IMG/VR virus record: IMGVR_UViG_3300027231_000029
Coordinates: 1-20,413 of that record
Strand: one strand, 5' to 3'
Origin: a virus
Length of the DNA stretch: 20,413 nucleotides
This document shows positions 10,971 to 15,631 of the stretch, piece after piece. Each line of letters starts with the position of its first letter. Within the stretch, counting starts at the first letter, position 1. Made by a program: the position numbers and the translations under genes. The notes under the pieces are model-generated. The model searched no databases. It was not told the DNA's origin and saw only the letters and a list, made by a program, of their open reading frames with translations.

Positions 10971-11886
10971 GGTTTAAAGTTGTTAGTGTTTGTTGTACCG
11001 GTGTTGTTTCAAGTACGTTATTACCTCCAATAGTGAATTTACAATAGTCTTGCATTGTAAACAATAACGGTGCTTCTCTCGGTGTAACACTACCTCCTGT
11101 TAATGTTTCTTTAACCTTTCTTACGTGTACTTCCGTTACATTGAATGCTGTTGCGTGTTGTGTCATACGGTGAATACTTATGAAGTCATCGGCTCTATTG
11201 GCGAACTTTTGCCCTCCTTCGGTGTCGGCTTTTTCGGGAGGCATCAAATGCCCTTCGTTTACGTGGTCTTTTGGGAACTTCTTACGCGCTGCCTCAGTTA
11301 CCAGGTGCGTATTAACGTAAAGACTTTTATGTGTTTGCTTGCAGAAGATACGCATCAAAGCGCATATCTCGTAGTCTTCTTCGTGCTTGTTGTTACCCAG
11401 TCCCATGCCTTTAAGTGAATTGTACGGGTCAATAAGTAAGCCGTTTGACTTCGTGCCGCTGCTCACTTCCAATATTTGCTTTGCATCAAATAACCTATCG
11501 TTCCGAATGAAATTAAACATTTCGCTCATTTCATCATACGTTCTATGCAACTGCATTTCAGGTATCTTAAAAATATTGATGCCCGTTAAAAACTGCGCTA
11601 TCTTAACTTTCAATGAACCTATTGAATTTTCGGCTGAAAATATATCCCACTTCAAATTATACTTTTTGCTTAAGACACAAAAATACCACAATATCCAGTC
11701 GGTCTTACCCACGTTATCGTGCCCGTTAATGAATACAAGTTGCTCAGGCTTGTAAGCTAAATGCTGGTCAGCTACTTTGTCGCCAATACCAAGCCCTCTT
11801 TTTATCGCACCGCTTCGCAAACCTTCTACGAATGCGCGTCCCTCTGATGGCTCAAAGATGTTTTCTGCTGCTATTAATTTACTCAT
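10906..11886 (-). CDS. DnaB/RecA-like replicative helicase ATPase
   Basis: This 326-residue protein has a RecA-type core: Walker A GHDNVGKT at residues 55-62, an ENS segment at 86-88, Walker B GLLIDPYN with Asp153, a sensor-like VNTHL around His194, and basic KVKE near 257-260. The length is short for DnaB, which also has an N-terminal domain; here only about 45 residues precede the core. This fits the single-domain helicase-like ATPases (DnaB-C, RepA or Twinkle type) that Bacteroidota phages place beside a DUF1376-like protein. The start overlaps the initiator stop as ATGA. The C-terminus is disordered and ends DPFPF, like the acidic-hydrophobic tips that bind partners. Confidence 0.8.
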   Translation of the reverse strand: MSKLIAAENIFEPSEGRAFVEGLRSGAIKRGLGIGDKVADQHLAYKPEQLVFINGHDNVGKTDWILWYFCVLSKKYNLKWDIFSAENSIGSLKVKIAQFLTGINIFKIPEMQLHRTYDEMSEMFNFIRNDRLFDAKQILEVSSGTKSNGLLIDPYNSLKGMGLGNNKHEEDYEICALMRIFCKQTHKSLYVNTHLVTEAARKKFPKDHVNEGHLMPPEKADTEGGQKFANRADDFISIHRMTQHATAFNVTEVHVRKVKETLTGGSVTPREAPLLFTMQDYCKFTIGGNNVLETTPVQQTLTTLNHAKNEGFETESVQADADPFPF

Positions 11887-12692
11887 AGTTCTTCGTGTTT
11901 ACCAAAGTTAGCCCAAGGCGCTGGGTTATTGCTTAACTGTACTTCGGCCTTTTTAGGTGGGTTTGTTTTTAGCCAGTTAGCAAAATGCTTTTTAACTTCT
12001 TCTGCATCCTCTCTCGGTTTTTCGATTAAATTCTGTATTGCAAAAAAATCTTTTAATGAAAGTGCTATTAATTCCCTATTGGTTTGATGCTTCATAATTA
12101 ACGGGTCAATCCATTGCTTGGAACTTAATAAATAATTCCAAAGTTGTTTTGACTTTTCTCTTTTGTCTTCTACATTACTATTACTATTATTATTTAAATC
12201 TTTATTTATATTTATATATAGCTTAAGCATTTGCTTAAGCACTTGCTTTAAACTATCTTCATTTTTAGTATCTAATTTTTCAAAATCAATTTCATTTTTT
12301 AAATACTCTATAAATTTATAATCATCACCATGAACGCGCTTTACAAACTTTATGAAGTATCCTATTTTTCCAGCAAGTCCCCTTTTTTCTGTGAACTTTT
12401 CTCTTGCTTGTATTACTTCTGCTGCAAAATGCTGTTTTAATCTTCCTTCATCATCTTGCTTAAATTTATGCTTAAGCACTTGCTCAAACATTTGCTTAAA
12501 TCTTTCAAATTCAGAAAACTTAACATTTGCTAAAACAGCTAATGCTTCAACATCGTTTGGCAAACTTTTTTTATCGTATTGATGAAGTATTAAATTAAGA
12601 TACCAGCCTCTTAAGTCTGCATCCATTTCTGCTGTCGCTACTAACCACTTATCTATATAAAAAAGTGCTGCTGGGTCTTTTCCATTAGACAT
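11883..12692 (-). CDS. Replication initiator/primosome protein, DUF1376-like, carrying the likely origin
   Basis: This 269-residue protein starts MSNGKDPAALFYIDKWLVATAEMDADLRGWYL, the typical DUF1376-like N-terminal winged-helix domain (about 1-95). A Lys/Asp/Asn-rich linker (about 120-175, with LNNNSNSN) follows, then a C-terminal helical domain ending KKHFANWLKTNPP as in Bacteroidota primosomal proteins. By analogy with lambda O, the N-terminal domain binds origin DNA and the C-terminal domain contacts the helicase encoded next (ATGA overlap). Two clusters of 12-bp repeats and an AT-rich tract lie inside the gene. Family placement is by eye; the initiator role is inferred from gene order and repeats. 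Confidence 0.75.
   Translation of the reverse strand: MSNGKDPAALFYIDKWLVATAEMDADLRGWYLNLILHQYDKKSLPNDVEALAVLANVKFSEFERFKQMFEQVLKHKFKQDDEGRLKQHFAAEVIQAREKFTEKRGLAGKIGYFIKFVKRVHGDDYKFIEYLKNEIDFEKLDTKNEDSLKQVLKQMLKLYININKDLNNNSNSNVEDKREKSKQLWNYLLSSKQWIDPLIMKHQTNRELIALSLKDFFAIQNLIEKPREDAEEVKKHFANWLKTNPPKKAEVQLSNNPAPWANFGKHEEL
12216..12251 (-). repeat. Three tandem 12-bp iteron-like units (cluster A)
   Basis: Minus-strand units TTAAAGCAAGTG, CTTAAGCAAATG and CTTAAGCTATAT follow one another exactly at 12251-12240, 12239-12228 and 12227-12216. They contain the 8-bp palindrome GCTTAAGC twice on the plus strand. They encode LKQVLKQMLKLY (residues 148-159) in the linker. Confidence 0.75.
12453..12500 (-). 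repeat. Four tandem 12-bp iteron-like units (cluster B)
   Basis: Minus-strand units TTTAAGCAAATG, TTTGAGCAAGTG, CTTAAGCATAAA and TTTAAGCAAGAT run from 12500 to 12453. They share the consensus YTTAAGCAARTG with cluster A, about 200 bp away. They encode residues 65-80 of the N-terminal domain. Confidence 0.75.
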
Positions 12693-12900
12693 TTTGCCCT
12701 CCTTCCTGAATCTTGTTTATTTCAGTTCTCAATTTCTTAGCTAATCTTATAGCTGTTGATTTGTCTAAGGAAATAAATAGATTTCTATCTCCTTCTGTAA
12801 TTGATAAAACGACATCATCCGATTCTCTAACACATTGGATAAATGATGAATCTTCTTTGTAAGACGAAGTTCCTTTTCCGTAAAAAAATATTTTTACCAT
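12685..12900 (-). CDS. 71-residue protein of unknown function after a structured leader
   Basis: The product starts MVKIFFYGKGTSSYKEDSS, continues with a beta segment (DDVVLSITEGDRNLFISLDKS), and ends with a basic helix TAIRLAKKLRTEI. I chose ATG 12900. A longer frame from TTG 13059 exists, but its extra 53 codons cover a promoter-like box and several stem-loops, so they are more likely a 5' leader. The gene overlaps the initiator start by 8 bases. Possibly a small regulator of replication; no family recognised. Confidence 0.6.
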   Translation of the reverse strand: MVKIFFYGKGTSSYKEDSSFIQCVRESDDVVLSITEGDRNLFISLDKSTAIRLAKKLRTEINKIQEGGQNV

Positions 12901-13040
12901 AATAATAACAGGTTTTACTAAACCTATAAAAATAAGTAGCCGCTTCGGGTACTTGCGCGGAGGTAGACTAATACCTATAACAAGTAACCCGATTAAGCTG
13001 TTTTTAAATATCTTAGTTGATTTAGTCTTTTCCGCTAAGA
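12901..13040 (-). ncRNA. Structured RNA leader or small RNA with attenuator-like folding
   Basis: Between MazG and the 71-residue gene the minus strand can fold into ordered elements. First comes a 5' hairpin TCTTAG/CTAAGA (13040-13011). Next, TCGGGTTACTTG (12992-12981) pairs with CAAGTACCCGA (12955-12945), 11 bp with one bulged T, enclosing a small hairpin AGGTA/TACCT. The alternative pairs AAGTACCCG (12954-12946) with CGGCTACTT (12942-12934) ahead of ATTTTTA. Last is AGGTTT/AAACCT (12925-12910) before the ATG. The middle segment can pair either way, as in transcription attenuators. Function not known. Confidence 0.5.
12928..12954 (-). terminator. Terminator-like hairpin in the leader
   Basis: AAGTACCCG, loop AAG, CGGCTACTT gives 8 of 9 paired positions and is followed on the minus strand by ATTTTTA. 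One mismatch and a short U-tract make it conditional or weak, in line with an attenuator. Confidence 0.5.
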
Positions 13041-13046
13041 GATGCA

Positions 13047-13054
13047 CAAATATA
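13047..13054 (-). promoter_or_regulatory. Promoter -7 box ahead of the structured leader
   Basis: TATATTTG on the minus strand (13054-13047) is identical to the box of the 10322-10352 promoter. No good TTG lies 17-23 bases upstream, so the -33 element is missing or atypical. Transcription from here would begin at about 13040, the base of the first hairpin of the leader. Confidence 0.35.
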
Positions 13055-13336: not shown

Positions 13337-15496
13337 TTAGAATAGTGTTGATTGTGATTTTTCCAATACAGCACTCTGCACATTCTTTTTAGCTTGGTTG
13401 TAGTAGCTTTCTTTTAATTCAAAACCGATAGCTTTTCTATTCATTTTAACTGCTTGAAAAACCTCTGAACCAATACCCATAAATGGAGTAAGTACCGTAT
13501 CACCTTCATTAGAATATAGTAAGATCAATCTTTCAATAGTATCTAATTGCAAAGGACAAATATGCTTTTCGTCATTTTCTTCTCTGCCATTTCTATAACC
13601 TTGCAATGTATTTCCGTAATCAATATCCATCCAAACTGGAGAAGCTATTTTTTGCCACAAATCAACTGGTATATTTGTGTTTGTTACTGGATTGGTTCTT
13701 TCTCCATCTTTTCTAAATACCATTACATAGTCAGGTATTCCAACGCGGCTCATAGTACTATCTTTTTTTACTTGCTTATGAAGTAAACCAAGCGCCTTAG
13801 TTCTTTGCATTTCAACAACAGGGTCTTTCCAAATCGTTATACGTGAATGATAAATAAATCCAGCTTCACTAAATGCTTTTAAAAGTAAGCCGCTAAAGTC
13901 GCGAAGTCCTATAAATCCTTCCTTTCCTTTTTGTATAGGTAAGTCCATGCAATGAACAGCTACATTTCTACCGCTTTGCAAAACTCTGTAAAGTTCCTTT
14001 ATTAAGAATCCAAACTGAATCAAAAATTCATTGTAATCTTTGCTATTACCCATATCTTCTAAGTGGCTTGAGTAGGTGTAAAGTTCAGCGAATGGTGGAG
14101 AGAATACACTTAACCCTACCGATTCGGTAGGCACATCTTTAATTAACTGGATGCAATCACCGCGTTTAATGTGATAGAATTCATTTGTTTCTTCTGTTGT
14201 GTCAACATTACCGACATTCATCAGTTCATTGTTTAGGTTAGCGTTAATCGCTTTGCTCATTTCGTCTTGCATAAGTTCAAATTGTTTTTGTTTGTTATCT
14301 ATTGATTGTTTTACGTTTGCCATCGTATCGGTAGTAATTAAATGAATGTTCACTTCATTCTTTTGCCCGAACCTATAAGAACGTCTTATTGCTTGGTATA
14401 ATCCCTCAAAGCTAAAATCTAAAGAAGCAAATATTTGATTTCGGCAATTTTGATAGTTCATACCAAATGACGCTATTTTTGTTTTGGTTATAAGCACTCT
14501 GAATTCATTATTTGCAAAACCTAAAAGCATTTTTTCTTTGTAATCTGAACTATCTGAACCTTTAACCTCAACAGCATCAGGTATTAGTTTCTTTAAGTAT
14601 TCGCCTTCCTCATTTTGCTTAATCCATATGATGAAGTTTTCATCGCTATTATTCACCAACGAAATAGCATCTTCCATTCTTTCAATCTTAGTTAACCTCA
14701 ACTCTTGATTAAAGTTAGTAGCCGAAATAATAGCATCATTAAATAGCTGACCGTTATCGCGTTTAGGTGTTACTATTTTACGTTCCAAAATATTAAGAGT
14801 AGGTAAATTATAACCTTCCATCGTAAATCCTATATCCTGTGGCTTATTTAACATTATCGCCCACGTTCCAATGAATTGATAGAATGTTTTAACCGCATGA
14901 CCTTTAAGCCTCCATTTTGCAGTTTCTCCGCCATCATGTACAAAGTACATTGCAAGCATTTCATTTCTACCCATAACATCTAAGAACTCGCTATGGTTTC
15001 CAAGTTCCATTGGGTCATTTGGTGAAGGTGTTGCAGTACAAGCTAATTTGTAAGGTGTGTTTTTAAACTTATCGATAATATTCTTTTTTGTTTCACCTTC
15101 AAAGTTTTTAAGGATAGAACTTTCATCTAAAACAATACCCGAAAAAATAGAGCAATCAATATTATCTAATTGCTCATAGTTTTGTATTACTATGTTTGTG
15201 GTATCAATTCCAAATCGTTTTGCCTCGTTTAGTGTTTGACCTTTAACCGCTAAAGGTGCAAGTATTAATACTGGCTTATTAGTGTGCTTTGCCACATTCT
15301 CTGCAAATGTTAATTGCATCAATGTTTTACCCAAACCACAATCAGCAAATATAGCATACTTACCAGCTTTTAAAGCGCGCTTAACTATGAATCTTTGAAA
15401 CGGGAATAAGTGATTGTTTAAATCATTGTCATCTACTTCAAAGCCACTTTCGATGTGCTTCTTTTGTTTCTTTTCTAAGAATTCTAAATAATCCAT
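13337..15496 (-). CDS. Fused SNF2-type helicase and beta-class DNA methyltransferase
   Basis: This 719-residue protein has two enzyme halves. Residues 30-420 form a superfamily 2 translocase: CGLGKT (53-58), LDESS (123-127), TATP (154-157) and QAIRRSYRFGQ (368-378). Residues 440-715 form an amino-methyltransferase with catalytic SPPF (466-469) ahead of the AdoMet-binding TPFMGIGS (670-677). This is the permuted beta-class order, with a possible target-recognition region between. SPPF suggests N4-cytosine or N6-adenine methylation. No nuclease motif is seen. Likely role: modifying phage DNA against restriction while tracking on it. A leader AAAAAACAAACAA precedes the ATG. Confidence 0.88.
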   Translation of the reverse strand: MDYLEFLEKKQKKHIESGFEVDDNDLNNHLFPFQRFIVKRALKAGKYAIFADCGLGKTLMQLTFAENVAKHTNKPVLILAPLAVKGQTLNEAKRFGIDTTNIVIQNYEQLDNIDCSIFSGIVLDESSILKNFEGETKKNIIDKFKNTPYKLACTATPSPNDPMELGNHSEFLDVMGRNEMLAMYFVHDGGETAKWRLKGHAVKTFYQFIGTWAIMLNKPQDIGFTMEGYNLPTLNILERKIVTPKRDNGQLFNDAIISATNFNQELRLTKIERMEDAISLVNNSDENFIIWIKQNEEGEYLKKLIPDAVEVKGSDSSDYKEKMLLGFANNEFRVLITKTKIASFGMNYQNCRNQIFASLDFSFEGLYQAIRRSYRFGQKNEVNIHLITTDTMANVKQSIDNKQKQFELMQDEMSKAINANLNNELMNVGNVDTTEETNEFYHIKRGDCIQLIKDVPTESVGLSVFSPPFAELYTYSSHLEDMGNSKDYNEFLIQFGFLIKELYRVLQSGRNVAVHCMDLPIQKGKEGFIGLRDFSGLLLKAFSEAGFIYHSRITIWKDPVVEMQRTKALGLLHKQVKKDSTMSRVGIPDYVMVFRKDGERTNPVTNTNIPVDLWQKIASPVWMDIDYGNTLQGYRNGREENDEKHICPLQLDTIERLILLYSNEGDTVLTPFMGIGSEVFQAVKMNRKAIGFELKESYYNQAKKNVQSAVLEKSQSTLF

Positions 15497-15631
15497 TTGT
15501 TTGTTTTTTATTGTTTATAAAATGCCTCTGCATGAATCTCGCACACACCTTTAACCTCCGATTGTATCCATTACTCATCGGCTAATGTTCTGTAATTAAA
15601 CTAAGAGGGAAAGAACGTCGTTTGTTTGATT

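What the first reader, a model, noticed from the sequence alone, without database searches (positions are those of the whole stretch)
12901..13054. Attenuator-like RNA leader with two mutually exclusive stems
A -7 box identical to another phage promoter lies ahead of a 140-base region in which segment 12945-12955 can pair either upstream (11 bp with one bulge) or downstream into a hairpin followed by ATTTTTA. Additional hairpins flank it. Such three-part folding is the sign of transcription attenuation, riboswitches or small RNAs. It sits just before the replication genes, so it could tune them. I recognise no known riboswitch class.
Basis: partly seen in the sequence, partly recalled or inferred. 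Interest (0 to 1): 0.65.

Follow-up and report, generated by a model that had tools for sequence, protein, structure and literature searches.

The report
Kissing-loop leader RNA of Flavobacteriia phages
Ahead of its DNA-replication genes this phage carries a folded leader RNA in which two hairpin loops pair with each other; related phages keep the fold with different letters, often fused to a transcription stop signal, so it is probably an undescribed control switch for early phage genes.

Summary
A conserved structured RNA lies on the minus strand at 13046-12938, but it is not the switch first proposed. In 12 related leaders 92.7% of 395 cells pair and 20 of 33 pairs change on both sides (0 of 500 shuffles). 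The key helix was missed: the loop of the 5' hairpin P1 (13028-13022) kisses the loop of hairpin P2 (12971-12965), with 5 of 7 pairs changed on both sides.

The same design (promoter, P1, P2 with kissing loops) stands before the matching replication operon in other Flavobacteriia phages, where P2 is usually an intrinsic terminator: 45 of 58 loci against 6 of 1160 shuffled, and 7 of 7 cultured phages examined. Rfam gives no match to the leader. Best reading: a kissing-loop transcription attenuator that works like the guanidine-IV riboswitch but is not a member of it. Direction of control and trigger are not shown, and the window's own copy lacks a clean U-run.

The parts
13047..13054 (-). promoter-like -7 box TATATTTG (Bacteroidota type, recalled) directly before the RNA
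   Evidence: same place in relatives
13011..13040 (-). hairpin P1 (stem 13040-13035 with 13016-13011)
   Evidence: helix 1: 95.8% of cells paired, 3 of 6 pairs with two-sided change
13022..13028 (-). kissing strand C in the loop of P1
   Evidence: helix 4: 98.8% of cells paired, 5 of 7 pairs with two-sided change
13032..13034 (-). strand B in the loop of P1, pairs with B'
   Evidence: helices 2 and 3: 100% and 83.3% of cells paired; 2 of the 3 pairs with two-sided change
12938..12999 (-). hairpin P2: outer stem 12999-12996/12941-12938, middle stem 12991-12981/12955-12946 with one bulge, inner stem 12975-12973/12964-12962
   Evidence: helices 5, 6 and 7 (100%, 80.7% and 100% of cells paired); -24.3 kcal/mol
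12965..12971 (-). kissing strand C' in the loop of P2
   Evidence: partner of C
12958..12960 (-). strand B', partner of B
12910..12925 (-). separate short hairpin just before the start codon of the 71-aa gene
   Evidence: similar stretch before the start codon in many relatives
12685..12900 (-). 71-aa gene (DKSTAIR protein, phrog_33177, unknown function), first gene behind the leader
11883..12692 (-). DUF1376 / primosomal-type replication protein, second gene

Best explanation
The leader is a cis-acting attenuator gated by an intramolecular kissing loop. RNA polymerase starts a few bases before hairpin P1. P1 folds first and shows strand C in its loop. When P2 is transcribed its loop (C') pairs with C, while the lower stem of P2, an intrinsic terminator in most group II relatives, tries to close. 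Competition between kissing and full closure of P2 sets how much transcription reaches the replication genes. By precedent with guanidine-IV, kissing should favour read-through. Shown: the fold with its covariation (group I), its place after a promoter-like box and before genes, and the terminator in group II. Inferred: that termination is conditional, the direction of control and any trigger. For the window's own copy (group I) termination is inferred from relatives at the matching operon position; control there may instead act on translation.
For: Covariation including the pseudoknot. Same architecture before the matching gene in 45 of 58 loci against 6 of 1160 shuffled regions; 4 or more U in the 8 nt after P2 in 45 of 49 elements. 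With promoter box and U-run required, 0 hits at score 52 or more and 1 at 50 or more in 119 unrelated viral loci, against 60 distinct elements at 50 or more in all loci then held. Start codons only 9-19 nt behind the terminator in seven leaders before other genes, so those genes must be reached by read-through (inference). 7 of 7 cultured phages examined have it. Kissing of P1 with the loop of a terminator stem is the proposed on-switch of guanidine-IV (passages).
Against: No experiment shows termination or its control. The window copy and the other group I copies lack a clean U-run, and the terminator scan finds none on this strand there. Isolated kissing helices of -6.0 to -15.4 kcal/mol may be too stable to switch without help. 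No trans RNA partner was found and no ligand or protein is known. Linker length does not rise with helix length as a simple spanning model would want (r = -0.34). 13 of 58 loci score below 52.
Confidence: 0.5

Rival explanations
1. Protein-binding leader: a phage or host protein binds the kissing complex and causes antitermination or autogenous repression; the RNA by itself does not switch.
For: Compact fold right at the 5' end of the transcript; several leaders with different kissing words in one phage, as a shared protein factor might use. The first gene product has a predicted fold that ranks closest to PUR-type single-strand nucleic-acid binders, though only at Z 7.1.
Against: The DKSTAIR protein is not the general factor: records G005 and G006 have the leader but no match to it, and in FCV-1 the first gene behind it is another one. 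No other candidate was tested.
Confidence: 0.18
2. Ligand-binding riboswitch of a new class, with kissing stabilised by a small molecule.
For: Pseudoknot plus terminator before several unrelated genes, a usual riboswitch sign; guanidine-IV has this design.
Against: The kissing strands vary widely (39 distinct words in 49 elements) and no nearly invariant pocket is shared by groups I and II as I read them; downstream genes are DNA metabolism and homing genes, with no common metabolite.
Confidence: 0.12
3. Stand-alone small RNA gene: promoter, structured RNA and terminator make a short RNA that acts in trans; the gene behind it is incidental.
For: In group II the unit has its own promoter-like box and terminator.
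Against: Start codons follow 9-19 nt behind the terminator in seven leaders before other genes; the position before the replication operon is kept; kissing words do not recur elsewhere in the phage beyond chance.
Confidence: 0.1
4. Attenuator with the two mutually exclusive stems that the first reader proposed.
For: Both pairings can be drawn in the window sequence.
Against: The downstream hairpin is not conserved and is 18.5 kcal/mol weaker than P2.
Confidence: 0.03

Closest known systems
Guanidine-IV riboswitch (mepA / GGAM-1 motif)
   Same: A 5' hairpin whose loop kisses the loop of a second hairpin that is itself an intrinsic terminator, before genes; kissing is proposed to hinder the full terminator stem (passages of PMC11611296 and PMC7736828).
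   Different: Longer and highly variable kissing helices, no highly conserved nucleotides in common, phage DNA-metabolism genes instead of guanidine exporters, several copies per phage; in group I an extra helix from the P1 loop and no clean U-run.
Intrinsic-terminator attenuators of bacteria in general
   Same: Promoter, leader RNA and terminator before the first start codon (group II).
   Different: No leader peptide or alternative antiterminator stem was recognised; the alternative state would be a loop-loop pairing.
HK022 put antitermination RNAs (recalled, not compared here)
   Same: Structured RNA at the very start of early phage transcripts.
   Different: As I recall, put has no built-in terminator and no kissing pair; no sequence comparison was made.

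Membership tests
Guanidine-IV riboswitch | P1 loop pairs with the loop of the terminator hairpin P2 | tested here: met
   Group I; group II (pairing; terminator in group II only)
Guanidine-IV riboswitch | Highly conserved nucleotides across members | tested here: not met
   39 distinct kissing words among 49 elements; groups I and II share architecture, not sequence
Guanidine-IV riboswitch | Controls guanidine exporter genes (mepA, sugE) | tested here: not met
   Downstream genes: DKSTAIR/replication operon, ERF, helicase, HNH, GIY-YIG, unknown
Guanidine-IV riboswitch | Match to a curated covariance model | tested here: inconclusive
   No Rfam match to the leaders; I did not check that Rfam 15 holds a guanidine-IV model
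Guanidine-IV riboswitch | Binds guanidine | not testable with these tools
   Needs binding assays
Intrinsic-terminator attenuator | Terminator between promoter and first start codon | tested here: met
   Group II only: 45 of 49 elements have 4 or more U after the stem. Not met for the window copy
Intrinsic-terminator attenuator | Termination is conditional | not testable with these tools
   Needs transcription assays or Term-seq
Any RNA family in Rfam 15 | Match at the gathering score | tested here: not met
   0 in the window, 0 in 14 loci; in 5 loci of cultured phages 1 match, DUF805b, elsewhere in morran9-1. Lax search of the leader: three matches at E 1.4-4.1, far below gathering; 11 loci at E up to 1: none
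HK022 put RNA | put sequence and structure; acts on RNA polymerase without a protein | not tested
   Recalled only; no put sequence was compared

The most novel reading that the evidence does not exclude
A new class of phage regulatory RNA: a ligand-free kissing-loop gate built into a terminator, used by a broad set of Flavobacteriia phages as a portable start module (promoter, kissing hairpins, terminator) for replication, recombination and homing genes, each copy with its own private kissing sequence so that leaders do not cross-pair.
Probability: 0.3. Interest if true: 0.8.

Novelty: new variant of a known kind. Interest (0 to 1): 0.62.

Why it matters
If true, it is a conserved RNA control point at the entry to the replication operon of many Bacteroidota phages. 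It would be a second natural case of the kissing-terminator design, whose way of working is still debated for guanidine-IV, and it can be tested directly because cultured phages carry it (morran9-1, Harreka_1, JQ, phi10:1, phi19:1, phi18:3, FCV-1).

Tried and rejected
The protein reading of the TTG frame was rejected: in-frame stops in L033, L037, L009 and L038, 4 of 4 relatives read. A trans partner for the kissing words inside the phage was not found: 32 extra occurrences of 21 words against 28.8 expected, of which 27 and 20.5 come from three AT-rich words that are probably false hits. A linker-length test of geometry gave no support (r = -0.34). Whether the kissing pair changes faster than the terminator stem stayed open: mean identity 0.88 over 8 comparable pairs against 0.97 for the stem. 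A DNA search of named phages showed nothing in the leader itself. Two scans of bacterial genomes for the DKSTAIR protein confirmed no relative, so hosts are inferred from cultured phages. For the DKSTAIR model no Foldseek match is below E 0.2 and no structural match reaches Z 8. The gap 15497-15631 of the window shows no unusual fold (z +1.22).

Caveats on counts. In the hand-made table I mistyped the 3' strand of P1 in L040, so I rely instead. In one search one measure, further pair types, was reached by 5 of 500 shuffles, and helix 6 shows only 80.7% because the alignment is out of register there. Hits count overlapping matches of one element apart. Elements are picked for complementarity, so their pairing is not independent covariation evidence; shuffles, position and unrelated DNA are the controls. 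One search also asked for the promoter box and the U-run, one search did not. The HNH leader of G003 scores only 47, where shuffles also give hits. Group I rows dropped before the alignment: identical copies of the window leader, L041/L009/L010 (like L033) and L047/L048 (like L046); of the 21 stretches, L311 and L322 are not the leader by eye. In one search, 9 of 58 loci score below 48: the window (group I), L017, L096, L107, L118 and L125 show the pattern by eye, L132 doubtfully, L325 one gene further upstream, L022 not at all. Harreka_1 and phi10:1 were read by eye in the gaps printed; the near-identical leader of phi19:1 scores 56.

Full report
Where it is. The window is a virus record of 20,413 bases. 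On the minus strand run RecT, a YqaJ exonuclease, a helicase-methylase, a MazG-like gene (13383-13060), the leader, a 71-aa gene (12900-12685), a DUF1376/primosomal-type protein and a primase/helicase-type protein. The leader is thus the 5' region of the replication operon.

Check of the observation. The leader folds at -37.8 kcal/mol, better than all 200 shuffles (z -3.78). The -7 box is there, but TAnnTTTG is no commoner in the window than chance (31 against 30.1). Both pairings of 12945-12955 can be drawn, yet P2 (-24.3 kcal/mol) far outweighs the small downstream hairpin (-5.8).

Relatives of the leader (group I). Searches with the neighbouring genes and a pattern scan gave 12 distinct leaders, aligned as A3. 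With the structure written out, pseudoknots included, 92.7% of 395 cells pair (shuffled mean 76.0%), 20 of 33 pairs have a two-sided change, and the covariation score is 0.457 against 0.169. None of 500 shuffles reaches any of these three; a fourth measure, further pair types, is reached by 5 of 500. Sliding the partner strand by 1-3 columns drops pairing to 37-52%. The loop-loop helix has 98.8% of cells paired and 5 of 7 pairs changed on both sides. Shuffles do not remove relatedness, so these are not probabilities.

The wider family (group II). A descriptor (promoter-like box, P1, loop strand C, complementary C' inside a second stem) found 54 distinct hits at score 55 or more against 3 in one shuffle of the same 1.29 Mb. 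A fairer test is position. Of 58 distinct DKSTAIR-type genes with 260 nt upstream, 45 have the element at score 52 or more against 6 of 1160 shuffled upstream regions, and 52 at 45 or more against 121 of 1160. In 119 unrelated viral loci (1.04 Mb), with box and U-run required, none reaches 52, one reaches 50 and seven reach 45. Of 49 elements, 45 have 4 or more U in the 8 nt behind the second stem, and 36 have TAnnTTTG just before P1 against 61 of 980 shuffled stretches. Ordinary minimum-energy folds, made without the kissing pair, give P2 and mostly P1 in cultured-phage leaders: z -5.19 (FCV-1, first leader), -4.15 (morran9-1), -4.15 (phi19:1), but only -1.65 in JQ and -1.64 for the HNH leader of G003.

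Hosts and spread. A DKSTAIR protein occurs in phages of Flavobacterium, Olleya, Tenacibaculum and Cellulophaga (11 records). The window's helicase part is closest, among named phages, to F. columnare phages (53% identity). I looked at the six phages behind and at FCV-1; all seven have the leader before the matching replication genes. The first FCV-1 leader is found in 70 phage records, 69 of them at 95% identity or more. Two scans of bacterial genomes confirmed no DKSTAIR relative.

More than one copy. Record G003 has four leaders, before ERF, an HNH gene (score only 47), DKSTAIR and an unknown gene; FCV-1 has two. Elsewhere a helicase gene, another HNH gene and a GIY-YIG gene follow such leaders. 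For ERF, two HNH, one GIY-YIG and three unknown genes the start codon is 9-19 nt behind the terminator, which leaves no room for another promoter; I infer that they are reached by read-through. Kissing words do not recur elsewhere in the same phage beyond chance. The leader is not tied to the DKSTAIR gene: G005 and G006 have it without that gene, and so has FCV-1 with another first gene.

How it probably works. [quoted passage not shown] The phage leaders share that design. Shown: the fold, its conservation, its place, and the terminator in group II. Inferred: that kissing against closure controls expression, in the same direction. Unknown: any trigger. Against a simple switch stand the strength of many kissing helices taken alone (-6.0 to -15.4 kcal/mol) and the missing U-run in group I (for the window). 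In eight of the 12 group I leaders (L038, L040, L043-L046, L049, L061) the P2 stem ends 11-16 nt before the start codon (counted from the sequences), so translation may be the controlled step there; in the window it is 37 nt.

Novelty. No Rfam family matches the leaders. Eight searches of the held library listed no paper whose title or shown abstract start describes this element; four of the lists were cut short, so this is not proof of absence. I read passages of two papers only. I file it as a new variant of the kissing-loop terminator kind and not as a guanidine-IV riboswitch, because two defining features were tested and not met.

Noticed in passing
window 12685-12900 (-): The 71-aa DKSTAIR protein (phrog_33177, unknown function) is predicted as four strands and a helix (pLDDT 78). 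Its best structural matches are PUR repeats (Z 7.1, 6.9, 6.6), then MRP1/MRP2, PC4 and Whirly, single-strand nucleic-acid binders; all are below Z 8, so this is only a lead.
   Followed up: partly
window 12910-12925 (-): A short GGT...AAACC hairpin stands just before the start codon of the DKSTAIR gene in the window and in many relatives, independent of the kissing leader; it may be a separate translation or protein-binding element.
   Followed up: no
L324:12838-12872 (Flavobacterium phage morran9-1): A DUF805b RNA (Rfam RF02914, E 9e-12) lies just before gene gp040 of this cultured phage.
   Followed up: no
L101:733-841 (+) and L111:1284-1396 (+): Two leaders have an unusually long linker (38-40 nt) of similar sequence between P1 and P2, holding a stretch close to ATTAAAAACCATAAAA; it may be an extra element.
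   Followed up: no
window 13337-15496 (-): One gene joins an SNF2/DEAD-type helicase to an N6/N4 DNA methylase; in L109 a helicase gene of the same PHROG families stands behind a kissing leader.
   Followed up: partly
L146:8593-9141, L171:4512-5018, L117:3603-4304: Free-standing HNH (NUMOD4) and GIY-YIG endonuclease genes sit directly behind their own kissing leaders, so mobile genes may carry or capture this control module.
   Followed up: partly
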